From Ophiocordyceps camponoti-saundersi (nom. inval.) (lineage: Eukaryota > Ascomycota > Sordariomycetes > Hypocreales > Ophiocordycipitaceae), in NCBI GenBank assembly GCA_003339415.1, contig PDHQ01000060.1, forward strand, positions 62,001 through 126,000: a stretch of DNA of 64,000 bases. The letters run 5' to 3'. The translations under genes and the position numbers were made by a program. The notes under the pieces were generated by a model. It did no database searches. It had not been told where the DNA came from and saw only the letters and a list, made by a program, of their open reading frames with translations. This document shows positions 29,941 to 60,951 of this stretch, piece by piece (position 1 is the stretch's first letter; every line of letters begins with the position of its first letter).

Positions 29941-30238
29941 TGTCAGAGGGCTAAGACAAGAGTGGGTTAGGCGTGTGTTTTTGTTATCCCTTGAGGCGTG
30001 CAGTTATCACAGCAACGGCTCCGCAACCTAGGAAACGGAATTCCTATTAGGAAAAAGGGCTATATCTAGGGCAATATATAGGATATAGGAATAAAGGCTT
30101 ATTTATAAGGGCATCACGGCATAAGAGGCAGAAACGGATAGTCTTTATTATATATATAAAGATAACGATAATTCCCTCTATTTTAAAAAGGTAAGTATAT
30201 TAATTAATATAATTTATACGCCTCCTCCTTATCTAATA
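29941..30238 (+). repeat. LTR1 (5' outer LTR, 298 bp)
   Basis: Starts TGTCAGAGGG and ends TCTAATA, the C-to-T and G-to-A mutated form of TCTGACA. The first 110 bases are hardly mutated; the rest is. Confidence 0.88.
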
Positions 30239-30253
30239 GTTATAAGCCCGGGG
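30239..30253 (+). promoter_or_regulatory. half-tRNA primer-binding site of the copia element
   Basis: GTTATAAGCCCGGGG directly after LTR1. With one G-to-A change undone it would be complementary to the anticodon region of initiator tRNA-Met (..GGCTCATAAC..), the half-tRNA primer used by copia elements. Confidence 0.6.
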
Positions 30254-31046
30254 ATATCACAGTTTACTATAATAACCTTTAAATAATTAAGCTAATTATA
30301 GAGGAGAATTTAAAGCTAAAGATAAAGCTCCTCTACGTTAATATATACTCTTACTAGTTATATTAAGAGGTTTAGTTAGGCCGTACGAAGATCGGCTAGA
30401 TAGAAATTTCCGGTATAATAGCGGATAGACTAACTAAGCTACTCTAAGGGGAGAAATTCCGCACTTTCTAGAAGGAAATTAGACTTACGAAGCTATATAT
30501 AGATCCGAGGGATTAGAGGGAAGAAAATACCTCTTAATCGACTCGTTAATTAAAAGCCTAAAAGGAAGAAAATACCCTTTATAAGCCCTATTAAAATAGG
30601 TAATTATACCTATTTACTCTCTATCTTATATATCGGATCCGGACTAATATATCCGCGATTAATCTTATTACTTATAACCTAAGCGTTACCTTAGATTATT
30701 ATTATTTCCTCCCTATTAGACTAATCTTTACTAAAATTAAATAGTAACCTTATTTTATTACTCCCTAATTACTATTATAATTATTTTCTTATTAGTTAAA
30801 TAATACCCTTATCTTAAGATTATCTTTTTTATTATTTATTCTAATCGGGGAGATTACTTTAAAATATTATAGATTTTTATTCGCGATATTTTCGTTTTCT
30901 CTATAAACTTTTCCTTTCTTATTTTTTTAACTTATCCGTTAGTCTTTTTATTATTAAGGTAATATAGTAAACTTATTAAAATATATAAAAAGATAAAAAG
31001 TTAGTAATACCTAAAAGTATTACTAATAAGATTAACTAAGGAAAAC

Positions 31047-31135
31047 CCCTAGCTAGGTAGTTTAGCTAGTTTACTATAATAAGGGGGCCCTTAATCCCCT
31101 TATTATAGCTACTAGCTAAGCTACCTAACTAAGGG
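31047..31135. repeat. long imperfect hairpin in the element's 3' region (first copy)
   Basis: Two arms of about 40 nt (31047-31086 and 31096-31135) pair around a 9-nt loop; mismatches are mostly explicable as C-to-T changes. The same hairpin occurs at 36841-36930 in the second copy. Confidence 0.75.
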
Positions 31136-31172
31136 CCTCCCCTATATAGTAGTTCCTAAAAGTATATATTAA

Positions 31173-31251
31173 GGAGGTACCGGGAATCGAACCCGGCCCT
31201 ATCGAGGGCTCGGCTATAAAAATAACCGCTTAACCGTTATCTAATACTTTC
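31173..31251 (-). pseudogene. class II tRNA-like sequence inside the retroelement
   Basis: Read on the minus strand it has a perfect T arm (CCGGG-TTCGATT-CCCGG), a long variable arm (GCCCT-CGAT-AGGGC), an anticodon-like stem (GGTTA/TAGCC) and an acceptor stem GAAAGTA/TACCTCC with two A-C mismatches. Both mismatches are what G-to-A mutation of GGAGGTA would give. Size (79 nt) and variable arm point to a Ser or Leu type tRNA origin. The anticodon cannot be assigned. The homologous site in the second copy (36967-37045) has lost its T arm. Confidence 0.6.
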
Positions 31252-31400
31252 TAAGCTAAATAAACTAACCTATATACCTTACCGCTAATTAACCCTTAAC
31301 TCCTTCCTTAATTATTACGAGAAACCTTAATTATACCCTCTAGAAGGTAGGCACTACTTACCTAGTATAGAAGGCGGTATACGTAGCGCTTATGGGGGTA

Positions 31401-31596
31401 TATTAGAGGGCTAAGATAAGAGTAGGTTAGGCGTATATTTTTATTATCCCTTAAGGCGTGTAGTTATTATAATAACGGCTCTGTAACCTAGGAAACGAAA
31501 TTCCTATTAGGAAAAAGGGCTATATCTAGGGCAATATATAAGATATAGGAATAAAGGCTTATTTATAAGGGCATCACGGTATAAGAGGCAGAAACG
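31401..31596 (+). repeat. LTR2 (internal, about 100 bp short at its 3' end)
   Basis: Identical in layout to LTR1 for the first 196 bases (TATTAGAGGG..., mutated TGTCAGAGGG), then diverges at GAAACG into internal sequence, so the last third of the LTR and the adjacent primer-binding site are missing. Confidence 0.85.
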
Positions 31597-34500
31597 TTAG
31601 TGCTCTCTAATCTAATTTATTTAATTCTGCTATTCTTATAGCTTATATAGCCCGTGCTTTATAAATTTACTTAATTAATTAAGCCCTTATAAAAGTAAGG
31701 CTATTATTACTTTCTTTAGCGGACTTATAACCCCTAAATTTATTAATTTTTAATAATAATTAATAATAACTTTAAATAATATAATAACTAATATAATAGC
31801 AGACTTTACGATATTAGTTAAACTTACTTTTATTCTTAAAAACCCTAAGGATTAAACTAATTAGTACTAAGACGTTATAAATATAATATAAGGCTATAGT
31901 ATTTAGTCTTTTATAAACCTGGAAATATAAGAGACCTTTAAAAAGCTAGATTATCCGGAAATCCCGTTTATAAGCTTAGAAGGTTAAATAAGGAGTAAGA
32001 CCCCTAACCCTAAGACTCTTTAACTACTTAGAGAAAAGTATAAAGTATTTACTTTTCCGAATTTCTAAAAAGACCTAAAAGAATACTATCGGATAAGGAA
32101 AGTATTAAAGGGGATAAATCCCTTTATCCGGGTAAGCCTCTTATTAGCCTATTAGTCCTTAATTTAAGGGGACTTTTTACTAAGGGAGAAATTAGTAACG
32201 CTATATACCCTTATATAGCCTAGTAATACTACTAAATATAAACTCGCTAAGGATAAGTTACGCGACCTATTCTTATAAGATCCCTTAAAAGGAGATATTA
32301 ATAATTAGGTTACTTAATTAATCTAAGCTTAGCGGATTTACTTATAACTAAATAGTATAAAGTTTACTAATAAAGTATACGTTAAGTATTTTATCTATAT
32401 AGTAAGGGATCGGTATCCCTTATTTATATAAACGATATAATATAACCTTAATCTAGTTTACTATAAAGACCGCGGAAAAGCTCCTTAATTTATTAATATC
32501 TTTTAGGAGTTTAAGAGGGCTAATTATAAGGCCCCTAAGTATAATAAAACTAAGAAGAAAATAGCCTTCGTTATTTACGATAATCTTAAGTAATAAACGA
32601 AAGTAAATACCTTATAGAATAAGGATTAAAATAGCCGCCCGGTAATATAAGCCCCTTTTTCTTCTTCTTCCTCTATATAAGTAAATTAAGAGGACCTTAG
32701 AGAGTATAACGCTTAAACCTATACTTAGTATAGTCGAAAATATCTTCGAAAGTTTAAGAAGAAGGAAAATTACTAAAGAAGGTACTTTTACGTTCTCCTA
32801 AACTTAATCCCTCCTTTTCTATAAAATTAGGTTAATCTTAATAAAAACCTTCTTCGATAAGTTACGGATAAGGTAGCTTATTATCGATTAACTTAACGGA
32901 AAGTTAATTAATAAAAGAAAGAAAATATAAGAATTACTAGCTAATAGAGGGATAAGGAAACCTCGGGCGTTTTTATAGCCCTAGGGAATCCCGCTTTAAA
33001 AGGTACGGAGATAAAAGATAGCGTCCTCCTTAATAGGAGGTGCTTAATATATATTTTTAACTCCCTTAACTAGTTCGATATTTTCGACCCGAACGCCCGG
33101 GCCGATCTTACTATTACTATAACTAAGGTTACTACCTTAGGGGTAGGTATAGTTATATTTATAATAGAAACGGGTTATTATATAACCTTTACTAATATCG
33201 GGTTTAACCCCGATTTTAATACTAATCTTATCTTTTTAATAGTTTTTACGGAAAAAGGTTACGCTTAGAATAACCTTATAAGCTAACTTTATAACTTAAG
33301 AAACGACGTAACTCTTTATTATATAGTTACGAGGATTAGGTAGCTTTAGTTATAGGTTATTAAACTAACCCTAATAGCTTTAGTTAACTTATAGGTTCCT
33401 CGACCTATTATTAAGACGGACGAGGACTTATAGTATATATAGATAGGCTACCTAGGCGCCGAGGTATAAGCCTCGCTAGGTAAGTTACCGGGGGTTAGTA
33501 TTAATAAGGCTATCTTAATAACTAACTGCGAGATTTATATAACTACTAAGCTTAGAAAGGAGAGATTATAAGTGCCTTATTAGGCCTCGTAGCCTTAACG
33601 CTCCTAAGCTATTATCTCTTTTAACCTATTTTATATAAGATTAGGCTATAATAGATTAGCTTATTTAGCCCTATTTACTTATAAGCTTATAGGAGAACGA
33701 AGGGGGTATAATATCCCTTATAAAACTAACTTACTTACTATATAGGTTAAATTCGTAGCCTATATCGCGAGATTCTTTAATTTATAGGTCTTAATTATCC
33801 TTACGGACTATAAGAAAGCCTTATTTACTAAGGCCTTCTATAAGGATATATTTTTTAAAAGTATTAATATTTAATTTACCTTACTAGTATATATATATTA
33901 AAATAGTTATGCCGAATAATTAGGGGGTATTATAACCTATACGGCTATATACCTCCTTATATAGTTAGGATTCCCTTATAACTTATAGCTAACGGCTATA
34001 TATATAGCTATCTACCTCCTTAATAGGACGCCTCGTAAGGTAAATAAGGGGGTAGCCGTATAGCTAATTAAACGAAGGCTCTATTAGCTTAAAACTTATA
34101 ACCTTTAGTAGGAGGGTTATCTATAAGATTATCTTATTTAAGACTTACGGTATATTAGAGCTTATAGTTATAAGGCGTTTCCTATAATAAGGAAGGCACT
34201 AAGAGGCCTTTAAAGTAAATTCGATCTAAAAGCTTATATTAGCTATTTAGCCGGTATTACCTCCTCCTTATAATACCTAATCTAGGTACCCTCCTTAAAA
34301 AGGCACTCCTTAATTAGCACTTCTTTTATTACCTTTAATAAGAAAATCTTCTTTAGCTAGGACTATTAAGAATTACCGGTTCCTTAAGCAGAAGAAGCCC
34401 TATAATAAATCTCTCTTATTAAAGATCGTATAGAAGAAGAAGAAGAAGAGGCCCCTAAGCCTCTCTTATATATATAATATATATATATAAAGCCCCCGGT

Positions 34501-36270
34501 ATATAATTTATCCGGCAAAGGCTCTTAAACTTAGGAAATATTAAAAAACGCGTTTTCCGGCCCTTCTAATTAATCTAGCGTTAAAGAGCGGGATAATAGT
34601 TATCCTAGCGCTAGATTTATAGATCCCTTAGTAAAAAAGGCGGAAACGCCCTCTTATACGCCTTTTACCCCTAACTTTTTTAATTAGATAGGGAATTCGG
34701 CCTTTATCCTCTCTTAAGCCCTTATAAATAAGCCTTATTAGGACTATCTACCGGAGCCCCCTCTTACGTATAAAAAGGCTTACGGTAGGCCTAATAAGGT
34801 ATAATAGCTAGAGGCTATAAAGGTCGAATTAATAAAGATAGAGGATTATAAAGTTACTAAAAAGATCTCGATAGCCGCTATGCCTTAAAGGTAGCGGTTA
34901 ATTAATCTTAAATAAGTCTTTATTTATAAGTTTAACCCTTAAGGCTTCTTTTAAAAATATAAAGCCCGCGTTATTATATACGGAAATAAGTAACTATTAA
35001 ACGAATTATCTATATACGCTTATACGCTAGCGGTACGAATATTCCGGTTATTAATAGCCTTAACGGCCTATTTTAACCTTAAAGCTCGGTAATATAACTT
35101 TATTAATACTTTTTATAATAGCGATTTTAATAAGGAAGTATATTATAAGCTTCCCCCCGGCTTTAATAAGCTAGGCCGGGCTTAGAGGTTAAAGAAAGCT
35201 TTTTATAGCTTTTAATAATCCCCTCTTCTTTAGTATAAACTACTTATAGCTTAGCTAAAGGAATAAGGCTATAAGGCTATTTCGGAAAACCCTTATATTA
35301 TAACGAACGGAAAGATTATTATTTTCTTCTATATCGATAACTTTATAGCTTTATTTAGGAAAGATTAAATAGATAAGTATACGAAGTTTCGAGAGGCTAT
35401 TAAAAAGGCCTTTTAAATTAAGGATCTTAGGGATCTTCGCTAATTCTTAAATATTAAGGTTATTAGGGATAGGGCTAATCGGCGTCTATTCCTAAGCTAG
35501 AAGTCCTATATTTAAAAAGTTATAATAAAATTTAAAGGGCTCCTAGGAAAGAAAACTCGGCCTTAGCTAATAATACTTAAGAAAATCCCTCTTTTCGAAG
35601 GGGAGGTAATAGCTAAAGAGATTAAGCGATATTAAGCTATTATTAATAGCTTAATATACGCTATAATTATTACTTAAGCGGACGTTACGTTTACTATTAG
35701 CTACCTAGTATAAGGTCTTATAAATCCTAGCCCTTAATATCTATAATCTATAGTCTATATTATAGAATTCCTTCGTAATACTTAGGACCTCTTAATTAGC
35801 TACGATAATAATAATTCGGCTATTATAACTATATCTAACGCTTTATTTAAAGATAACTATAACTAAAAGAGTACTAGAGGCTTTATTATCTAAGTTTTCG
35901 GGGGTATAATTATCTTTAAATCGGGTAAGTAAGATATTATTATAACCTTATTTATAGAGGTAGAGTTCCTAGCCCTCTCTTACGTTATTAAGGAAATTAG
36001 AGCTTTTAAGAGGCTTTATAAGGAAGTAGAATTTAAGCTTATATAGTATATTATAATTTATTATAATAACTTTTAAATAATTAAGCTAATTACGGAGGAG
36101 AATTTAAAGCTAAAAACGAAGCTCTTTTATATTAATATATACTCTTACTAATTACGTTAAGAGGTTTAGTTAGGCTATACGAAGATCGGCTAGATAGAAA
36201 CTTCCGGTATAATAGCGGATAGACTAACTAAGCTACTTTAAAAGGAGAAATTCCGTATTTTCTAGAAGGA
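31597..36270 (+). pseudogene. RIP-inactivated copia gag-pol
   Basis: No open frame survives, but with stops ignored the translation shows copia domains in order: gag-like region up to about 33000; protease/GAG-pre-integrase at about 33060-33600 (TTLGVGIV, LYNLRND); integrase core to about 34350 (VPYQAS, TDYKKALFTKAF, YAEQLGG, LLNRTPRK); reverse transcriptase about 34910-35600 with YIDN at 35330-35341 in place of YVDD; RNase H about 35860-36240 (STRGFIIQ, SGKQDI, EVEFLALS, IIADRLTK). Most stops are TAA/TAG at Gln-type positions, as expected from C-to-T mutation of CAA/CAG. It is non-functional. Confidence 0.85.
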
Positions 36271-36840
36271 AATTAAACTTATAAAGCTATATATAAATCT
36301 AAGGGATTAGAGGGAAGAAAATACCTTTTAATTAACTTATTAATTAAAAGCTTAAGGAGAAGAAAATACCTTTTATAAGCCTTATTAAAATAGGTAGTTA
36401 TACCTATTTACTCTTTATCTTATATACTAGATCTAGACTAATATATCCGCGATTAATCTTATTACTTATAACTTAGGTATTATTTTAGATTATTATTATT
36501 TTCTTCTTACTAAATTAATCTTTACTAAAATTAAATAGTAACTTTATTTCGTTACTTCCTAATCGCTATCGCGATTATTTTCTTATCGGTTAAATAATAC
36601 CTTTATCCTAGGATTATTTTTTTTATTATCTATTCTAATCGGGGAGATTATCTTAAAATATTATAGACCTTTATTCGTAATATCTTCGTTTTCTCTACGA
36701 ACTTTTCCTTTCTAATTTTTTTAACTTATCCGTTAGTTTTTTTATCGTTAAGGTAATATAGTAAACTTATTAAAATATATAAAAAGATAAAAAGTTAGTA
36801 ATACTTAAAGGTATTACTAATAAGACTAACTAAGGAAAAC

Positions 36841-36930
36841 CCCTAGCTAGGTAATTTAGCTAATTTACTATAATAAGGGGGCCCTTAATCCTCTTATTAT
36901 AGCTACTAGCTAAGCTACCTAACTAAAGGC
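36841..36930. repeat. long imperfect hairpin (second copy)
   Basis: Counterpart of 31047-31135, with further C-to-T changes in one arm. Confidence 0.7.
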
Positions 36931-36966
36931 CTCCCTTATATAGTAATTCCCGAAAATATATACTAA

Positions 36967-37045
36967 GGAGATATTAGGAATTAAACCTAGCCTTATTAAG
37001 GGCTTAGCTATAAAAATAACCGCTTAACCGTTATCTAATATTTTC
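36967..37045 (-). pseudogene. degenerate second copy of the tRNA-like sequence
   Basis: Aligns with 31173-31251 at the same 5794 offset. The D- and anticodon-side half is kept while the T arm and variable arm carry several C-to-T changes. Confidence 0.5.
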
Positions 37046-37194
37046 TAAGCTAAATAAACTAACCTATATACCTTACCGCTAATTAACCCTTAACTTTTTC
37101 CTTAATTATTACGAGAAATTTTAATTATACCCTTTAAAAGGTAGGTATTACTTACCCGGTATAGAAGGCGGTATACGTAGCGCTTACGGGGGTA

Positions 37195-37492
37195 TATTAA
37201 AAGGCTAAGATAAGAGTAAGTTAGGCGTATATTTTTATTATCCCTTAAGGCGTATAGTTATTATAGTAATAGCTCCGTAACTTAGGAAACGGAATTCCTA
37301 TTAGGAAAAAAGGCTATATCTAAGGCAATATATAGGATATAGGAATAAAGGCTTATTTATAAGGGTATTACGGTATAAGAGGTAGAAATAGATAGTCTTT
37401 ATTATATATATAAAGATAACGATAATTCCCTCCGTTTTAGGAGGGTAAGCATATTAATTAATGCAATTTGCACGCCTCCTCCTTGTCTGACA
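37195..37492 (+). repeat. LTR3 (3' outer LTR, 298 bp)
   Basis: Mutated at its start (TATTAAAAGG) and nearly unmutated in its last 70 bases, ending TCTGACA. Confidence 0.88.
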
Positions 37493-37497
37493 TGTAT

Positions 37498-39595
37498 AGC
37501 ATACATACATAGGTACATACCTACATATGTGCCGACCTGCCAGACAAAGGCGGATGAATTCATGTTGGGCGCATGTTGTGAAAACAACCCTTCCGCGACA
37601 CAAAGAGGCGCAATACATCGTCACAAGTGGCGCAGCAAGGCACGTATGCACGACTGTTCTCGTGAGTATCTAGGTAGGTATTCAGGAGCATGAGCGGCCT
37701 CCGTACTGAATGAAAACAAATGTTTTTCTCTGCTGATGTGGTATGTAGGTATGTACGGATATGTACGGATATCTAGGTACATATGGAGAAGTACGTCAGC
37801 TGTGGCGTCTGGTTTTTCTTTCGGAGGGCGGCGGGGTATGCAGTGTTGGTGCTACTGCTACCCAAATTAGAGAACGTGGGGAAGAAAGTTCCGGGTTGCC
37901 TATCTCTTCCGCATCTTATCAATCTCATCTCCCAAGGCATTATCGTCATCCGGTAACCAGATATCCACATTCAATGGGCCGGCTTCGCACTACATCATTC
38001 GAGGTCATCAGTAAAGAGATCCATCCTCGGTGTCTAATACTCACGCGAGGTTTTTTTTTTTTTTTCAAGGTTCTTCGTCCAACATTTGTATCCTCTTTGG
38101 CCGCCTATGCGAAGATCACCCCCAGTAACGGGACTCATATCAATCACTTAGTCGCAGTCACCCGAAAAGCCTGAGCGTAAAGCCTACGGGATTCAAAGCG
38201 GCCTAGATTGCCAGAACTTCTACTATAGTGAGCTGTTGTAGCAGGACAAAGTACCGTAGAGCTGCACAGCCAAACGGGACACGCAGCGCCGGCTCCCCGT
38301 GCCAATCGGAGAAAGGCCTCCGTCATTTCCGTCGTCCATCCGATAGAAGCCCTAGAAGGGGGAATATCAAGGTGTTTAAGGGAAGGGTAAGACGGGCTTT
38401 GGTTTCTTCCCGCTTCACTCCGTGGAAACCTCAGCTCCCGTATGACTCATGAGGAAAGGCTTCGTTCATCCGATCTCAGATACAACGTCACATTCACATT
38501 ACCAACTGCAATATATCTCGCATTTCGGGTGACCTCAGCCAGACAAGGTCGGGGGCTGGCCAATAGGCGTCTCCCGGGCGATGCTTCTGCCGGCCAAGCC
38601 TTGTTTTTCCCATCACCTTGACTGTGGTCTGGCTATTCTATATAATGACAAGGAGCTGTTCTTTCACCGCGTCTTCTACGTGATGTGAGTGGCGCAAAAA
38701 TACTGCAGTCACAGCCACATCCACAAAATTGTTCTTTGATCGTCGACTGGCGCTCCGCCACAAGAAAAAAAGTGTATATACCCAAAGATTGCAACTGGAG
38801 TTTCGGTCACCGGCCATGAAAGGGTGAGGAAACTCAAGAATTTGGGTTGTGAATAGGGTATCTGGTCAAAGCAGTCTAGAAGGACTTGAGGAGGTTTGAC
38901 TGGGAACTGCTAGAAGCAGGTGCTAGGGTTGAAAGGCGGCAAAAGCACGGCAGAATCCCCAAGGTGTGAGACTAGGTATTATCACATGAAACATACCTAT
39001 CCAACCTTGCATAGGAAGATCAGGTGTAAAACGCCCGCATGGCTTGTTGGTGTGAATATGCCCTTGGAAGCGATAATACCCTGCATCAACACCGAGAACC
39101 TGCATTGAAAAAGGGGGGATAAATTTTCAGCGAGGCAGGCAGTTAGGCCGCCCTGCAGTGCCTGATTCACTGTCAGCCACACCGCGTCACTTAGTTAGGT
39201 ACTGAAGAAAGGAGAGAAAGTGTGATATCCAAAGCCCGTTGATGACGTGTCTCTATCCATTTCAAGCTCCCGTGAACAGCGAGAATTCCAAAGGGTGAGA
39301 AGATGAATTTCCCCAGCATGAGAAGTAAAGTACAGTTTCATACAGCCTGTGAACTAATAATCACAGGCTTAAATTAACTTGGCTCAGTTTATCTGGAAAA
39401 ACACATGTTACGCGCCAAGGTCCCCGTAAATCAAGTGAAAGAGAGAAAGACGACCCATGTGCAATCCGACTCAGCCCGCTTCATCTCTCCCTCCCCCCCT
39501 TTTTTCCTCTTCTCAGCCACCGACGTCAACCCAGAAGATAAGGCAGCGTAACCCGCCTTACCTTTCCCCCTTTTGCCCGACATCGGACACCCAAG
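37498..39595. other. intergenic, no gene seen
   Basis: Normal base composition resumes at once. Open frames are short and without domains; TAGG/GTAC microsatellite-like stretches occur at 37670-37780 and a T run at 38050. Confidence 0.5.
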
Positions 39596-54058: not shown

Positions 54059-55782
54059 TTAACCTAAAAGGCCAAACGGTCTCCAGGAACGAATAGGGGG
54101 ACATTCTCGGCTAAAAAAACAATCCTCCTCCTTCTCCTCACTCACAGAATCCTCAGATCCTAGTCTTACCTTTGACTGGCCAGCACGACGCAACAGGTCC
54201 TCCAACTCGCCTTTGCGGATGGGTTCAGGCCCCTTGGACCTGATTTCAGCTTCAATATCCTTTTCGCGAAGCAAAGAAGTCCATTTCTCCAGGAAGACGG
54301 TCCGAATCTCGCGGATGAGCGCGTGCGACGATGCGGAGGCGTTCTTAGGGCTGGCAGCGGTCTGCTTGACCCAATCCTTGCATTTCCCGATCATCGCGTC
54401 CCCTTCAAATTTGGCGTCTTCTTTCTGTTCTTCATCTAGCAGTTCGTTGCGTTCCACGAGCTGAACTACTGACGATATTCTGTACATTCTCCTGATGATG
54501 TCCGCGGCCGCACCGTGTGCCATGTCGTAGTCGGGGATCTTTTCCTCTTCCGCTAGCAACTCGCCGAACTCGGTCCATCTCCCGAGGAGGATGCCGAAGT
54601 TGTAATTGTGCTCACAAACGCGCTCTTCGAATAGCTTCAGGAAATTGTTGACCTCGCTGACCGAGTTGCTGCCAAATGTCTCTGGCGTCGCGCTCGACGG
54701 CTTGTTCAAACCTTTGCCCAGGTAACCTTCATACTCGATATCCATCGACACATGAGCAGTGTCTGTCAAGTTGCTTATCGATCTTTGCCCTTCATCGTCG
54801 ATTTTTCCCTTGATGCCCCAATATGTCGACGAAGCTGTGAGCGCGGCCCCAACGTCATTTTTGGTTTTCCCTTGTTTGGCCTTGACGGACAACCTTATCA
54901 CCAGATGTCCGCCCCCTATGAAATCTGGGCCCATGATTATTAGCTCCTTGATCATCATCATCATCATCAACGACAACACCATCGTCGGGTTTAGCTTACT
55001 GCGAAGATATCGATCGCCATGACTGCCCAGCGTCCACTTTCCGTTATTCAACAATGGCTCTTTCTTCAACTTCGGCTGCTTAGTGACTGTGGCCGTGATC
55101 AGATACGTCATGTCATTGTTGGTGAATTTTGCCTCGTCCAGGAGATTGCCTGAGAATTGCGCTTTGCTGCCATAGCCGGAGATGGCGAGAGTACTCTTGA
55201 AGTTGATGTCTTTCATGTACTCGGAGATACTGTTCACCACTTTTTTGTGAATCACGAATTTGCCGTTTGCACCTCCCGGGCACTCAACTTCAGTGGCTGG
55301 GACCTGGTCTCGCTTGTGATGTAATGAAGGCCTTTTCGATGCCTGACTCTGACGGGGACCAGTTTTCTCTGTCGGTTCGTCGTCTCCGAGGAGGAATGAC
55401 CACTTGTCAGGCATTTCCAGCAGAGCGTCAATGCTCAGTTCCTGGAAGGGAAACTGCAGGCCCGATTCATTCTTCTTTGTCGACGTTGGAAAACCTGATT
55501 CTCTTCTAGCGCGCCCTGAATCTCCCTTGACAGTTTTTATGTCGACGAGGCCGTCAACCAACGGTCGATGGAGAAAGGAATTGTATCTACATACATGCAG
55601 GGCGCGATTAGAGAAAGACGGTGCCCGCATTCATCGAGCTTGGGAACTTACCCTGAGCCCAAGCTCGCGCCTAAGAAATATTTCGTCGTGTCAAATTCGC
55701 CGACCACCACTGAGGGACTGGTGAGAAAAGTGAGTCCAAAGAGTGACAGAGCGGTCCATTTCATCTTCATGTTCATCTTCAT
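54059..55782 (-). CDS. secreted MACPF-like protein (putative pore-forming fold)
   Basis: Exons 55782-55652, 55586-55000 and 54924-54059 encode 527 residues. Residues 1-28 are a signal peptide (WTALSLFGLTFLTSPSVVVG). The middle part shows the pattern of fungal MACPF-like proteins: alternating small/polar strands around FSGNLLDEAKFTNNDMTYLI, then HGDRYLRNFIGGGHLVIRLS (the YG-GG-type signature), then a strand-rich KNDVGAALTAS segment. The second intron (75 nt, 54925-54999) is in frame without stop; unless it is removed, a Met-rich string interrupts the signature. The C-terminal 200 residues are helical and unknown. It is divergent from the I9-domain gene. Membrane activity is not proven by sequence. 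Confidence 0.62.
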
Positions 55783-56335: not shown

Positions 56336-57556
56336 ATGTTCCGCCTCAGAGATGCAATCATCCTTTTTCTGCTACCTGCTTTCGTTGCCTCTTTCAACAC
56401 CGGTCGAGTTCCCAGATTCGAAAGATGCAGTCTTCCATTGTCCGACAAGACGAGTTTGCCGCCTGTCAAGATCCAGCTGAATGGCACTGGATGGCAGCTC
56501 TCGAAAATCTCTGAAATGATTAGAACTGCGAGTGATGAAGACCAAGAGGTGTTTCGTGATCACGACATGTTCAATTCACGTCCCAAACCATTGACAGCAA
56601 TCAAGTTGCCTATTGGTAGGTCTTAGCTACGAAACTCACTGCTAGAAAGAACAATTTCCATTAACCAGCAGTTGATCAGGAAACTACTCGGCCATCGTCA
56701 ACAGGGACGGCAAGGATCTCTTCTTCGGCATAGTGGCTGTAAAGCGACAAGGCGGTGGTAAGCCGACTTTCACAGTCGCCTATAAAGTCGAAGACGAGAT
56801 GAAATCCGGAGCATACCTCAACGGAGGCACCATTCCAGAGACTGTACTTGAAGATGGCGTGGGGAAGAAAATCAGCCGTGCAGATGTCGTCAAAGCTATA
56901 TTCGATGGCCGAACACTGTTACCAGAAGGAGACTTGATGATCGGTCAGTTGGATGGATCGTATCAATTTCAAAAAGGAATAGGTATGCTGAAGCTTTTAC
57001 TACACCTCGAGAACAAGACATGCTGACTAGGAAATCGAGACTCCTACGTCGGCGTCGTCTTTGACGGGAAGAACAGAGCACAAGTCATCCGCCTGGTAAA
57101 ATATGACAGCCCGACATCCAGACGGGATCTCCAACGGCATGAAACCATCTGGCAACCGGAAAAGAAAGCTCGACAACCAGAAAAAGGAGTCGAGGCACCA
57201 AAAGACAAAGGAACCGAAGCACCGAAAGATGAATCATCCGGCTCAACGAACTCAGGAGAAGCATGCGAGATTCCAAAACTCGGCTACATCGTCGAGTTTA
57301 AACCGGACACGTCAGACGATGGCATCAAGAATCACTTGGCATGGGTCGAGAGTCACTATCAAGGAGAGCTCGAAGAGTTTAACATTGGAGAGTTTCGGGG
57401 CTACGTCGGAAACTTCAACTCGACCTTGATCGGGATGATCCAAAAGGAAAAGGTACGTGCAGCGACGACTGATGGGAAGGAGGGAAGAAGAGAACGTCGT
57501 CTAACAGCTTCGAGGTTATCCGAGATGTTTCCCGCGATACTATTGTCCAGTTGTAG
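56336..57556 (+). CDS. secreted protein with C-terminal I9 (subtilisin propeptide-like) domain
   Basis: Exons 56336-56615, 56680-56982, 57031-57452 and 57515-57556 encode 348 residues. Residues 1-20 are a signal peptide (AIILFLLPAFVASF). Residues about 25-230 are an unknown, probably globular domain (GNYSAIVNRDGKDLFFGIVA, SYVGVVFDGKNRAQVIRLV). A Lys/Pro/Glu-rich linker (about 236-272) leads to an I9-type fold at about 278-348: YIVEFKPDTSDDGIKNHLAW, FRGYVGNFNSTLIGMI and, in the last exon, VIRDVSRDTIVQL, which matches the C-terminal strand of I9 domains. The last acceptor (CTTCGAG) was chosen because it restores that strand; the nearer CTAACAG would not. I9 domains fold and inhibit subtilases. 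Here it is not joined to a protease; a subtilase without propeptide lies 1.5 kb downstream. Confidence 0.72.
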
Positions 57557-57733
57557 GATTAGGAGACTGAAAAGGCCCGTGTACAAGGACAACAGGGAGA
57601 GAGGGGAGAAAGCGCTGTAGCAGAGATTGTGGGTAGTTAACAGTCGGGTCAATTTGCTAGGTTGAGGGTAACGTGTCGCCTTTTCGCTAGGATGAGAAGA
57701 GTAGTTGCTTTCAAGTGCCTTGTAGTGAGTGAT

Positions 57734-58075
57734 TCCCGCCAGATTCCGCTTCAAGCTACACTACCTAGCTAGTGAAATATGAGGCATAATTATCATTGCT
57801 CATCTGTTCATCACCAGTAGTTCTTCCCCTGACTCTCCCCAGATTCCGATCTTAAGCTGCACTGGCTAGTGAAACGCGAGGCGTAATGATAATTGCTTAT
57901 CTATTTATGACATGTTAGCATTTCGGTAGAACTCGAGCTAGGTTGAGAAGAGGAGTCACTTTCTAGTAATTCAACAGATTTCCGAATCAAGCTGGACCGG
58001 CTGGTGAAACGTAAGGCGTAGTTATGAATTGCTTATCTGTTCTTCATGACATGTTGGGATTCCCGAAGCTATTCC
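57734..58075. repeat. diverged tandem repeats of about 110-120 bp, three units
   Basis: Units share AGATTCCG..TCAAGCT, CTAGTGAAA.G.GAGGC.TAAT and GCTTATCTGTTC-like blocks. Start points are near 57740, 57841 and 57968. Confidence 0.6.
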
Positions 58076-58133
58076 CACACTTAACCCCGACGATCGTGAA
58101 TTATCGTGTGAGAGAGGAATGTGCATGATGTTG

Positions 58134-58472
58134 TGCTTCGCCTTGACTAGTTTCCGACGGGCCGGACATGCGGTAACCTGTTTCGGCTATCTTCGGCAGC
58201 CTTGATAGCTTCGCCTTGACTAGGTAGTTGCCGACGGGCCAGACATGCGGTAACCTGTTTCGGCTATCTTCGGCGCCCTTGATAGCTTCGCCTTGACTAC
58301 CTACCTACCTAGGTAGTTGCCGACGGGCCGGACATGCGGTAACCTGTTTCGGCTATCTTCGGCGCCCTTGATAGCTTCGCCTTGACTACCTACCTACCTA
58401 GGTAGTTGCCGACGGGCCGGACATGCGGTAACCTGTTTCGGCTATCTTCGGCACCCTTGACAGCTTCGCCGG
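58134..58472. repeat. four tandem repeats of 73-97 bp with growing TAGG spacer
   Basis: Each unit carries GACGGGCC.GACATGCGG, TAACCTGTTTCGGCTATCTT and CGGC..CCTTGA. The spacer after GCCTTGACTA lengthens from none to GTAG and then to two identical CCTACCTACCTAGGTAG forms, so the last units expanded by tetranucleotide slippage. Confidence 0.9.
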
Positions 58473-59093
58473 CTCCATCCCTAGACGGCAATTGCACTGA
58501 CAAGTTATAAGTTGGGCTTTATTTAATCATGTCATGAGCGCCTTTAGACCAAGGCTGATGAGTCCCACTAGCCTTACTTGATCTCCTAGCCTTCTGATCC
58601 TCCAGAAGGATCTTCCAGAAGGATCTTCCAGAAGGATCCTCTTTGCTGTATACATAGCCAGTACCTCGACAGTTCACCAACAGTTGATAGGCATCAAGTT
58701 TCTGCATTCGATCCCTTGCTCGGTGCCTTTGCAAGTTGCGCGGTAGAGATTGCGAGTTGACTTCCCCGCTAGTAGACAACTTTTTCCGCTAGGTGGATGA
58801 CTTCAGGTACCCGCGTCTCATCCGTCATGACATCGGTTCCCTCTCTTCTACAGACGAGGCATTCTGCAATGCGGGAAGACGCCTCGCTCTAACGCTGCCG
58901 TCTGTAACTCTAGCGTGGGCCGGCTCGGCTTCCCTTACAGAGCTCTCTTTGATAGACCAAGTCAGGCTCACTGGCGAGAAGTTTACGACTCAGGTTGCAA
59001 GTCAAAGATTTGCTGATAAATGAGAAACTCCAATGTGCTCTTTGTACATGCCATCCTTTTGAAATGGTTTCAAAACCTCTTTCACTCGTTACA

Positions 59094-60314
59094 ATGCATA
59101 GCTTTAAGCACGTCCTTCTCTTGTGCCTGGCCTCCGTCTTGGCTGTCTCGGAACAGCATGCTGAACGGCAAATCAGTAAGCCGGGGGTAAGTAGGGAGCT
59201 CTTGATTATTGGATTTCGAAGCCGTTGACCATTTTTTTCCCCCTCTCGGCAGAAACTCAACGCACGAGATCTAGGTCCCCAGGGAACGAGAAACTCGTGG
59301 AACCTTCGCTCTATTAGACCACAAAAGCCACTGGTCCCGGTTACGGGAGCCATCGCGGGAAAGGGTACGTGGGCATACGTCGTCGACAGCGGCGTGAACG
59401 TGCATCATAGTGAATTCAACGGCCGGGCCTCACACGGAAAGTGCTTCATCGAATGCGGAGACTCTCTTTTCAAAAAGTCCGAACAGTGGAAGGACGACCT
59501 GGGTCATGGCACGATGGTGGCCGGCGTTATCGCCGGTGAGGTCGGCGGCGTGGCTCCCGAGGCGAATATCATCGACGTCAAGATTATGGGTAAATGCAGG
59601 CGAACGAAGACAAGCAAGATAATGAAAGCCTTGGAATGGATCCAAGAAGATATAGCAAGGAACCCAGAAAGATTGCACAAGTCGGTCATCAACATGTCAA
59701 TTGGTATAGCAACGCCTCTTCCTACCTACCTACCTACCTATAGATGGGGAGCCAGTCTCTTGCTAATATAGGTGCTATTAGGCAGAGAATGCCCGGAAGG
59801 CAAGAAGTTCTCTGAATGCAAGAATTTCGGCATACACGCGGGCCTGGAAAAGGTTGTCAAGGCCACGACTGACAAGGGCATTCCCATAGTAGTTGCTGCC
59901 GGAAACGCGGGACTGCTTGCCGAGTGGGACACACCAAAAGGTCTCCCGAGCGTGATAGCGGTCGGAGCGGTGAACAGTACATTCCACGAGGAACCAAAGT
60001 ACAATTTCGGTCCTGCTGTCGACCTTCTCGCCCCTGGCATCAACATCCTTGTCGCGGATCCGAAACGCAAGCGCGGCGGAGTCTTAGAGTCGGGCACCTC
60101 CCTCGCGGCGCCTCATGCTACCGGCATCGCTCTATCTATCCTTGCCCGCTCGCGTTCTCTGTCGGTGATGGAACTCAAAGCAAAGATGATCAAGATGGCG
60201 ACGGGCAGAACCGTCTATCCTTGTCTTCGAAGCGCTTACAAAGGCAGAGAATACATCGACCGTAGTGAAATGCTTACTCCTGCTAGAAGACTTTTCGACG
60301 ATCTTTCAACATAG
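59094..60314 (+). CDS. subtilisin-like serine protease (S8) without I9 propeptide
   Basis: Exons 59094-59186, 59253-59703 and 59782-60314 encode 358 residues. Signal peptide about 1-17 (MHSFKHVLLLCLASVLAVS). The S8 triad is complete: D76 in VVDSGVNVHH, H116 in GHGTMVAGVIAG, S288 in SGTSLAAPHATG, with the oxyanion N223 in VVAAGNAG. Between the signal and the catalytic core there are only about 40 residues, where proteinase-K-type relatives carry an I9 propeptide of about 80-100. It is therefore either activated with a short pro-segment or depends on a propeptide in trans, for which the I9 protein at 56336 is the obvious candidate. The 5' side was checked to 58520 without finding an upstream I9 exon. 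Likely a secreted endopeptidase. Confidence 0.9.
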
Positions 60315-60618: not shown

Positions 60619-60951
60619 TCAAAGTTTGTTTTCGCATGTAAAGTCCTTCTTATCCTTTCCTTTGTTAGAACAAGTGACCTTGGTTCCGGAAATAGTACAC
60701 GTGTCGCCTGCTTTCTGTTTCTTGCAGAAACTCTCACATGCGGCACTGGATCTGAAGAGTTCAAGGCAGTTGGGTTGTCCGCTTTTCGTCGCTCCTTTCT
60801 TGTCTTGCAGCTGCTGTGTAGGCTGAGTATTTCCTTTCCTCTTGAAAAGGTCGCCTGCTGTCACGTCTGGTGAAGCATTGTTGGCCGTGTTGGGCAAGGC
60901 TAGTGCGGAACTTCCGGCCAGAGTGACGAGGACGGCAGCTGCGAGCTTCAT
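60619..60951 (-). CDS. small secreted Cys-rich protein
   Basis: Intronless, 110 residues. Signal peptide about 1-19 (MKLAAAVLVTLAGSSALA), then a short acidic/Asn segment ending in a dibasic KR/KGN site that could be cut by Kex2. The mature part holds six Cys (spacings 9, 3, 8, 9, 11) and many Lys. Such proteins are often effectors, defensin-like antimicrobials or protease inhibitors, but no known motif matches. A TATATATA lies about 180 bases upstream on the minus strand. Confidence 0.75.
   Translation of the reverse strand: MKLAAAVLVTLAGSSALALPNTANNASPDVTAGDLFKRKGNTQPTQQLQDKKGATKSGQPNCLELFRSSAACESFCKKQKAGDTCTISGTKVTCSNKGKDKKDFTCENKL

What the first reader, a model, noticed from the sequence alone, without database searches (positions are those of the whole stretch)
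56336..60314. A split subtilase: protease without propeptide next to a separate secreted I9 protein
The subtilase at 59094 has a full D-H-N-S catalytic set but only about 40 residues where relatives have an I9 propeptide. A distinct secreted protein at 56336 ends in an I9-type fold after an unknown N-terminal domain and a Lys/Pro linker. They are adjacent, same strand, both with signal peptides. Known: I9 domains act as intramolecular chaperones and inhibitors. Inference: here the function may have been moved to a trans-acting partner, or the I9 protein inhibits foreign subtilases.
Basis: partly seen in the sequence, partly recalled or inferred. Interest (0 to 1): 0.85.

Follow-up and report, generated by a model that had tools for sequence, protein, structure and literature searches.

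The report
Protease and its propeptide, separate genes
In a fungus related to ant-infecting Ophiocordyceps, a subtilisin-like protease lacks the built-in chaperone-inhibitor that such enzymes normally carry, and a neighbouring gene encodes that part as a separate secreted protein; a second species has both genes, so one enzyme may have become a two-gene system.

Summary
Gene 1 (56336-57556, 348 aa): signal peptide, N-domain, Pro/Lys linker, I9 (Pfam above cut-off). Gene 2 (59094-60314, 358 aa): signal peptide, 27-residue spacer, S8 domain with D/H/N/S, no I9. Ophiocordyceps camponoti-leonardi has both as separate genes (CP532_0352, 65%; CP532_0350, 64%; same listed contig length), so this is not fresh decay in one genome. 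The 'unknown' N-domain is explained: paralog C540 in the same genome carries N-domain, linker, I9 and S8 in one gene with corresponding introns. Gene 2's signal peptide matches those of fused paralogs in register, so I favour tandem duplication with complementary loss over fission. Gene 1 stops at Asp+5 (relative: Asp+7); solved propeptide chains of relatives end at Asp+6. Most likely gene 1 acts in trans on gene 2 as folding chaperone and product-like inhibitor. Shown by sequence: architecture, conservation, one-subfamily origin. Inferred: binding, folding, inhibition, co-expression. Against: an Orbilia subtilase also appears to lack I9, so a partner may not be needed. Closest precedent: Plasmodium SUB1-ProM, a stand-alone propeptide-like gene beside subtilase genes. 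New variant of a known kind.

The parts
56336..57556 (+). Gene 1: secreted N-domain + linker + I9 protein, 348 aa; exons 56336-56615, 56680-56982, 57031-57452, 57515-57556
   Evidence: Gene model; Pfam I9; relative P0001 65% identical over 100% of the query
56336..56395 (+). Gene 1 signal peptide (residues 1-20)
   Evidence: By eye; in-register similarity to signal peptides of paralogs C722 and C266a
56396..57134 (+). N-domain (residues 21-229, spans two introns)
   Evidence: Pairwise hhalign to the N-domain of fused subtilase C540, E 1.1e-9 over 201 columns; C33 match E 6.9e-9
57135..57278 (+). Pro/Lys-rich linker (residues 230-277)
   Evidence: Sequence; lies where C540 has a Pro/Thr/Arg linker and C33 a Gly/Ser repeat
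57279..57553 (+). Inhibitor_I9 domain (residues 278-348), interrupted by intron 57453-57514 just before its last strand
   Evidence: PF05922 23.5 bits, cut-off 21.2; an intron before the last I9 strand also in C540 and, by eye, in C722, C443 and C266a
57554..57556 (+). Stop codon; protein ends at Asp+5, within one residue of the propeptide end in solved relatives (Asp+6)
57557..59093 (.). Intergenic stretch, 1537 bp; no other copy found in the genome, no I9/S8/N-domain relics found
58148..58470 (.). 89-bp tandem repeat, 3.9 copies
59094..60314 (+). Gene 2: secreted subtilase without I9, 358 aa; exons 59094-59186, 59253-59703, 59782-60314
   Evidence: Gene model; Pfam S8 E 8e-35 and no I9; relative P0002 64% identical over 100% of the query
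59094..59150 (+). Gene 2 signal peptide (residues 1-19)
   Evidence: By eye; conserved in P0002; DNA in register with C33, 38 of 50 bases; in-register BLOSUM scores
59151..59297 (+). Spacer of 27 residues in place of the propeptide (spans intron 59187-59252)
   Evidence: No Pfam match; residues 12-48 of P0002 modelled below pLDDT 50 with no second fold
59298..60311 (+). S8 catalytic region; D76 59385-59387, H116 59505-59507, N223 59904-59906, S288 60099-60101
   Evidence: the model of relative P0002 matches proteinase K (1ic6) by Foldseek, E 7.8e-25

Best explanation
A secreted proteinase-K-type subtilase has become a two-gene system. An ancestral gene of the form signal peptide, N-domain, linker, I9 propeptide, S8 protease (as still seen in paralog C540) was duplicated in tandem. 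The upstream copy lost the protease and now stops almost exactly at the propeptide cleavage site; the downstream copy lost N-domain and I9 and kept a signal peptide and the protease with its catalytic residues. Both proteins enter the secretory pathway. The I9 protein probably docks on the protease in trans, helps it fold, and leaves its C-terminal tail in the active-site cleft like a cleaved product, giving a non-covalent latent complex. The complex would become active when the I9 protein is degraded or outnumbered, so activity would be set by the ratio of two gene products rather than by one self-cleavage. Shown by sequence: architecture, catalytic residues, presence of both genes in two species, shared subfamily, stop position. 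Inferred: the duplication-and-loss history, co-expression, binding, folding help, inhibition, activation.
For: I9 above the Pfam cut-off in gene 1 and P0001, none in gene 2 or P0002. Both have relatives over 100% of the query in O. camponoti-leonardi: CP532_0352 65% and CP532_0350 64%, longest contig 398156 bases for each. Catalytic residues kept in P0002. C540 model has I9 (319-387) and S8 (427-691) in one chain, a homologous N-domain (E 1.1e-9) and introns at corresponding places in the same phases, placed by eye. Tree of 16 S8 rows: gene 2 + P0002 fall with C33, C266a, C540 and C722 at 97/97. Signal peptides: gene 2 matches C33 DNA in register, 38 of 50, and the best family pairings exceed all 18 control signal peptides for each of gene 1, gene 2, P0001 and P0002. 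Stop at Asp+5 (P0001 Asp+7) against Asp+6 in two Alp1 prodomain chains and proteinase K. C551, where I found no usable I9 and no partner was sought, also has Gly at the catalytic Asp position.
Against: No expression, binding or activity data. P0104 of Orbilia oligospora (337 aa, 12 members) has signal peptide, short spacer, S8 and no I9 match, so a fungal subtilase may do without I9, unless that model lacks exons. 98 of the 120 proteins listed bear no I9 label; some of those do have propeptides (P0022 scores above cut-off; P0021 and P0052 by eye). A locus tag (CP532_0351) lies between the two in O. camponoti-leonardi and orientation there is unknown. The N-domain (157 of 209 identical to P0001) is better conserved than I9 (38 of 58), so gene 1 may have another main job. 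The Glu two before the I9 Asp, present in 8 of 9 relatives displayed, is Ser in gene 1 and P0001. The stem to gene 2 + P0002 is long (1.61), compatible with changed function or relaxed constraint. Gene 2's exon-1 frame is open 46 codons upstream of the ATG. DNA similarity of signal-peptide exons was seen with C33 and C540 only, not with C266a or gene 1.
Confidence: 0.55

Rival explanations
1. Gene 1 is a stand-alone regulator of other targets (the fungus's own I9-bearing subtilases, or subtilases of host or competitors), perhaps with the N-domain as its main functional part, and gene 2 folds without an I9 partner.
For: Stand-alone I9 proteins and SUB1-ProM are described as inhibitors apart from any chaperone role. 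P0104 of Orbilia oligospora appears to be a secreted subtilase without I9. The N-domain is more conserved than I9. A weak N-domain-like secreted ORF lies at C22 (E 0.0074). Some raised S8A genes lack I9 in O. camponoti-floridani (PMC7341126).
Against: Gene 2 lacks its I9 while its neighbour has one of the same subfamily, and both are present in two species. The stop position mimics a cleaved propeptide.
Confidence: 0.25
2. One gene, wrongly split: a long intron of about 1.5-1.8 kb joins I9 exons to the S8 exons.
For: The GTACGT donor after 57452 and the acceptor before 59253 are both phase 0; the exon-1 frame is open 46 codons upstream of the ATG.
Against: That join would drop the last I9 strand. 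Gene 2's first exon encodes a family-type signal peptide in register from the ATG and P0002 starts at the same Met. O. camponoti-leonardi is annotated as two genes (models as deposited). The corresponding introns of C540 are short.
Confidence: 0.06
3. The two genes are decaying halves of subtilases with no joint function; gene 2 may be misfolded or inactive.
For: Other subtilase loci here look decayed: C551 has a truncated I9 region and no catalytic Asp, and the frame of C33 appears disturbed. Long stem branch.
Against: Open frames, usable splice sites and catalytic residues at 64-65% identity to another species are not expected of neutral decay. The S8 core of P0002 models well (most blocks 85-93 pLDDT).
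Confidence: 0.09
4. Gene fission by insertion: sequence between I9 and S8 split one gene, and gene 2 gained a new start and signal peptide; trans function as in the best explanation.
For: Exactly the two halves are present, in order and on one strand; the gap holds a minisatellite and no other copy was found in the genome.
Against: Gene 2's signal peptide resembles those of C33 and C540 at DNA and protein level, so it looks inherited or captured from the family rather than made anew.
Confidence: 0.05

Closest known systems
Plasmodium SUB1-ProM (PMC6993865)
   [quoted passage not shown] shown there to inhibit SUB1
   Different: SUB1 has its own propeptide and SUB1-ProM is proposed as added regulation; here the neighbouring protease has none. 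Gene 1 also carries an extra N-domain
[quoted passage not shown] named in PMC6993865)
   Same: I9-type protein not attached to a protease
   [quoted passage not shown] gene 1 is a 348-aa protein with a signal peptide whose kin in this genome are the 5' halves of fused subtilases, next to a propeptide-less protease
Fungal proteinase-K-type subtilases (proteinase K 8rse/1ic6, Alp1 8gko)
   Same: Gene 2's S8 domain and catalytic residues; gene 1's I9 matches the Alp1 prodomain, weakly (E 0.028)
   Different: There one chain carries propeptide and protease; here they are two genes
Paralogs C540 (open) and C33 (frame appears disturbed) in the same genome
   Same: N-domain, linker, I9 and S8 in this order on one strand; corresponding introns in C540
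   Different: One gene instead of two
Orbilia oligospora P0104, S8 without I9 match
   Same: Signal peptide (by eye), short spacer, S8, no I9
   Different: Outside the subfamily as far as listed (33% identity over 68%); whether a separate I9 gene is nearby was not tested
Separately encoded foldases such as the lipase-specific foldase Lif (recalled, not checked here)
   Same: A folding helper encoded beside its enzyme
   Different: No sequence link tested

Membership tests
Inhibitor_I9 / stand-alone I9 inhibitors | I9 domain above the curated cut-off | tested here: met
   23.5 bits vs 21.2; relative P0001 23.4
Inhibitor_I9 / stand-alone I9 inhibitors | Not part of a protease precursor | tested here: met
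   Stop codon after I9 in the gene model and end of P0001; no S8 in either. Depends on the splice model
Inhibitor_I9 / stand-alone I9 inhibitors | Small single-domain protein | tested here: not met
   348 aa with N-domain and linker
Inhibitor_I9 / stand-alone I9 inhibitors | Inhibits a subtilase | not testable with these tools
   Needs protein
Proteinase-K-type S8A subtilase (gene 2) | S8 domain with D/H/N/S | tested here: met
   model of relative P0002 matches proteinase K by Foldseek
Proteinase-K-type S8A subtilase (gene 2) | N-terminal I9 propeptide in the same chain | tested here: not met
   No match at E <= 1; 27 residues of spacer; none found in 57557-59252
Proteinase-K-type S8A subtilase (gene 2) | Secreted | tested here: inconclusive
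   Signal peptide by eye and by similarity; no predictor run
SUB1-ProM-like arrangement | Stand-alone propeptide-like gene next to a subtilase gene, same strand | tested here: met
   1537 bp apart, both + strand
SUB1-ProM-like arrangement | Conserved synteny of the pair | tested here: inconclusive
   Same listed contig length and tags two apart in O. camponoti-leonardi; DNA and orientation not available; one other genome only
SUB1-ProM-like arrangement | Partner protease has its own propeptide | tested here: not met
   Gene 2 has none
Trans-acting folding chaperone | Protease needs it to fold | not testable with these tools
   Needs co-expression

The most novel reading that the evidence does not exclude
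A natural, obligate two-gene zymogen: a secreted subtilase that gave up its intramolecular chaperone and now depends on a separately encoded I9 partner for folding and latency, produced by tandem duplication and complementary loss, so that protease activity is set by the expression ratio of two secreted proteins.
Probability: 0.47. Interest if true: 0.85.

Novelty: new variant of a known kind. Interest (0 to 1): 0.7.

Why it matters
Propeptides are the textbook intramolecular chaperones, and laboratory work has shown that they can act in trans (recalled). A natural protease that has handed the job to a second gene would directly test whether cis linkage is needed, and how a self-controlled zymogen turns into a two-component system. 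The host type adds interest: in O. camponoti-floridani, I9-domain genes are enriched among genes raised during host manipulation; two of the three are subtilases, the third is not said to be one (PMC7341126, section 26 read). Whether that third gene corresponds to gene 1 was not tested. I saw no report of such a pair in the listings or in the papers opened from them; the library holds open-licence papers only and most listed papers were not opened.

Tried and rejected
Hidden I9, S8 or N-domain relics between the genes: none found. De novo signal peptide for gene 2: disfavoured. The 5' leader match between gene 2 and C722 only equals the best of 100 shuffles (27 vs 27) and is not used. Structure of P0001 from four rows: mean pLDDT 31.6, useless, so the N-domain fold is unknown. 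Gene 1 itself found one protein at E <= 1 among 1640 candidates; a profile search for N-domain relatives found again only P0001 among 7992 scored. Fused relatives over about 690 aa lie outside that search's length limits and I could not check which Ophiocordyceps proteomes the database holds, so rarity is not claimed. dN/dS: not possible, no O. camponoti-leonardi DNA. PDB search of gene 1: only weak matches to the Alp1 prodomain (two rows, E 0.028) and one unrelated.

Survey of S8 loci: 31 rows (the tool calls its counts lower bounds) merged by eye into 26 loci with the two C167 stretches apart. Sixteen look proteinase-K-type with the C167 pair counted once. Of these 16, I9 is over the Pfam cut-off in 9 and found by gene 1 similarity in 2 more, C33 and C722 (C722 is itself in the HMM); it is below cut-off in C529 (20.4 bits) and C167 (14 bits), only a propeptide-length region by eye in C233 (no Pfam I9), and not found in C551 and gene 2. 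The other 9 were assigned to other types by eye.

Full report
What the window is. The window lies in an unnamed 45.7-Mb assembly (contig C562:62001-126000). Genes have introns, and the best protein match of each gene is from Ophiocordyceps camponoti-leonardi, so I treat it as an Ophiocordyceps-type fungus; the species was not determined.

Gene models. Gene 1 has four exons (56336-56615, 56680-56982, 57031-57452, 57515-57556) and encodes 348 residues. Gene 2 has three exons (59094-59186, 59253-59703, 59782-60314) and encodes 358 residues. All introns are GT..AG; I chose the sites by eye to keep frame, and P0001 and P0002 support them. Pfam gives I9 at residues 280-348 of gene 1 (23.5 bits, cut-off 21.2) and S8 at 68-323 of gene 2 (E 8e-35), and no I9 in gene 2. 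D76, H116, N223 and S288 are present.

Conservation. Gene 1 matches CP532_0352 (P0001, 360 aa, 65% identity, 100% coverage), the only protein at E <= 1 among 1640 candidates. Gene 2 matches CP532_0350 (P0002, 341 aa, 64% by BLASTP; 69% in the MAFFT alignment); the next hit is a fused I9 + S8 protein of Metarhizium acridum at 36% over 73%. For both, the longest contig is listed as 398156 bases. P0001 has I9 at 290-358 above cut-off; P0002 has S8 and no I9. P0002 keeps the signal peptide, the spacer motif and the four catalytic residues; its annotated model lacks a stretch that includes the strand VINMSIG of gene 2, perhaps a gene-model error. Adjacency there rests on tag numbers and contig length only; one tag lies between, and orientation is unknown. 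Identities of gene 1 to P0001: signal peptide 12 of 20, N-domain 157 of 209, linker 24 of 41 with 7 gaps, I9 38 of 58, tail 7 of 13.

Origin. A search of the own genome with gene 1 found N-domain and I9 stretches at C33, and searches with gene 2 and PF00082 found the S8 directly behind them on the same strand. C540 is an open single-gene model: signal peptide, N-domain, linker, I9 (319-387), S8 (427-691), 801 aa. Its N-domain aligns with the gene 1 + P0001 pair over 201 columns, E 1.1e-9 in a pairwise comparison. C540 has introns at corresponding places and in the same phases as genes 1 and 2: near the GxY motif (phase 1), before the VF motif (1), before the last I9 strand (0) and in the S8 domain (1); I placed these by eye. 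C722 and C266a read as I9 + S8 genes without N-domain. In a tree of 16 S8 rows, gene 2 + P0002 fall with C33, C266a, C540 and C722 at 97/97, on a stem of 1.61; the tree is rooted at the midpoint only. So gene 1 corresponds to the 5' part and gene 2 to the 3' part of genes of one subfamily.

Fission or duplication. Gene 2's first exon aligns with C33 in the same register after the ATG, 38 of 50 identical, score 40 against a best of 28 in 100 shuffles; C540 gives 30 of 40, score 30 against 27. C722 gives 27 against 27 in the leader, and C266a and gene 1 give no match above shuffles. In-register BLOSUM62 scores of the first 20 residues against C33/C540/C722/C266a: gene 2 23/29/16/23, P0002 38/32/14/15, gene 1 4/6/22/17, P0001 15/20/31/30. 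The best of 18 other signal peptides scores 18, 10, 4 and 4 respectively. So gene 2's 16 with C722 lies below its best control (P0020, 18), and gene 1's 4 with C33 only equals its best control; 15 of the 18 controls are other subtilases returned, several near-identical to each other. Both starts thus look inherited, which suggests two full copies with complementary losses. No relic of the lost halves was found between the genes. The history is inference.

The end of gene 1. Counting from the conserved Asp of the last I9 strand, the two Alp1 prodomain chains end at Asp+6 by chain length (8gko_A, Asp aligned at 89 of 95; 8u45_A, 95 of 101; their last residues were not displayed). In proteinase K the precursor 8rse reads D-AVVTIN-AAQTNAPWGL and the mature chain 1ic6 has the Gln at position 3, so it begins after Asp+6. 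Gene 1 stops at Asp+5, P0001 at Asp+7. A random truncation need not fall there. This is what a product-like trans inhibitor would need.

Other subtilases. Of 16 proteinase-K-type loci of the genome (C167 counted once), I9 is found in 11, below cut-off in 2, by eye only in C233, and not in C551 and gene 2. C551 has a truncated propeptide region and Gly at the catalytic Asp position. Outside this genome, 98 of the 120 proteins listed bear no I9 label. Of five fungal ones that I rescanned, P0022 has I9 above cut-off and P0104, P0062, P0021 and P0052 have no I9 match; P0021 and P0052 have propeptide-like regions by eye, P0062 starts at the protease, and P0104 (Orbilia oligospora, 337 aa) has a signal peptide, a short spacer and S8 only. 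P0104 is a result against my reading: a secreted subtilase without I9 may be viable alone, or may itself have a separate partner, or its model may lack exons.

Structure. The model of P0002 has an S8 core mostly at 85-93 pLDDT and a disordered N-terminus (residues 12-48 below 50) with no second fold; Foldseek finds proteinase K (1ic6 E 7.8e-25). The model of P0001 failed (31.6). A complex could not be modelled.

How it most likely works. Both proteins are exported; I9 docks on the protease, assists folding and blocks the cleft with its C-terminal tail; loss of the I9 protein frees the enzyme. The steps from docking onward are inferred from known propeptide behaviour (introduction of PMC6993865). 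The N-domain may anchor or time the complex; its role is unknown.

Known relatives. SUB1-ProM is the nearest arrangement (abstract, introduction and discussion of PMC6993865 read): a stand-alone propeptide-like gene in the same orientation within an array of three subtilase genes, an inhibitor of SUB1, which has its own propeptide. The paper also names Pleurotus, yeast and Arabidopsis stand-alone I9 proteins and Toxoplasma MIC5. In O. camponoti-floridani, I9-domain genes are enriched among genes raised in manipulation; two of three are subtilases, and some of six raised S8A genes lack I9 (PMC7341126, passages and section 26). This fits but was not linked to the present genes. Passages only were seen of PMC6240243, PMC11241649, PMC2717940 and PMC11057048.

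Verdict. Observation confirmed; interpretation partly supported; a new variant of a known kind. I put the two-gene reading (separate genes) near 0.9 and the trans chaperone-inhibitor mechanism at 0.55.

Noticed in passing
P0104, Orbilia oligospora: Another fungal subtilase with signal peptide (by eye), short spacer and S8 but no I9 match, 12 member sequences: a possible second case of a lost propeptide, or a gene-model error.
   Followed up: partly
L073 (C22:214538-214765 with flanks): Secreted-looking ORFs with a weak N-domain match (E 0.0074) and no S8 row on C22; the N-domain may also exist as a stand-alone secreted protein.
   Followed up: partly
L065 (C551:196833-197402): Subtilase with most of its I9 region missing and Gly at the catalytic Asp position: a possible pseudoenzyme.
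   Followed up: partly
L057 (C33) and L060 (C266a): Both paralogs change reading frame at an oligo-A run in the same place, between the WGL motif and the first S8 strand; C33 also has an in-frame stop in its repeat linker. Shared frame change, assembly error or odd intron: unexplained (one search listed only intron candidates that I judged unconvincing).
   Followed up: partly
window 58148-58470: 89-bp tandem repeat of 3.9 copies between the two genes; the query 57557-59252 found no other copy in the genome (the tool skips simple repeats).
   Followed up: partly
window 54059-55630, - strand: 523-aa ORF with no Pfam match, divergent from gene 1.
   Followed up: no
window 60619-60951, - strand: 110-aa secreted-looking Cys-containing ORF, convergent with gene 2; no Pfam family above cut-off.
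   Followed up: no
window 30001-38000: AT-rich island (GC 30-33%) in a window otherwise at 47-66% GC.
   Followed up: no
P0002 (CP532_0350): The annotated model lacks a stretch including the strand VINMSIG of gene 2, perhaps a gene-model error.
   Followed up: no
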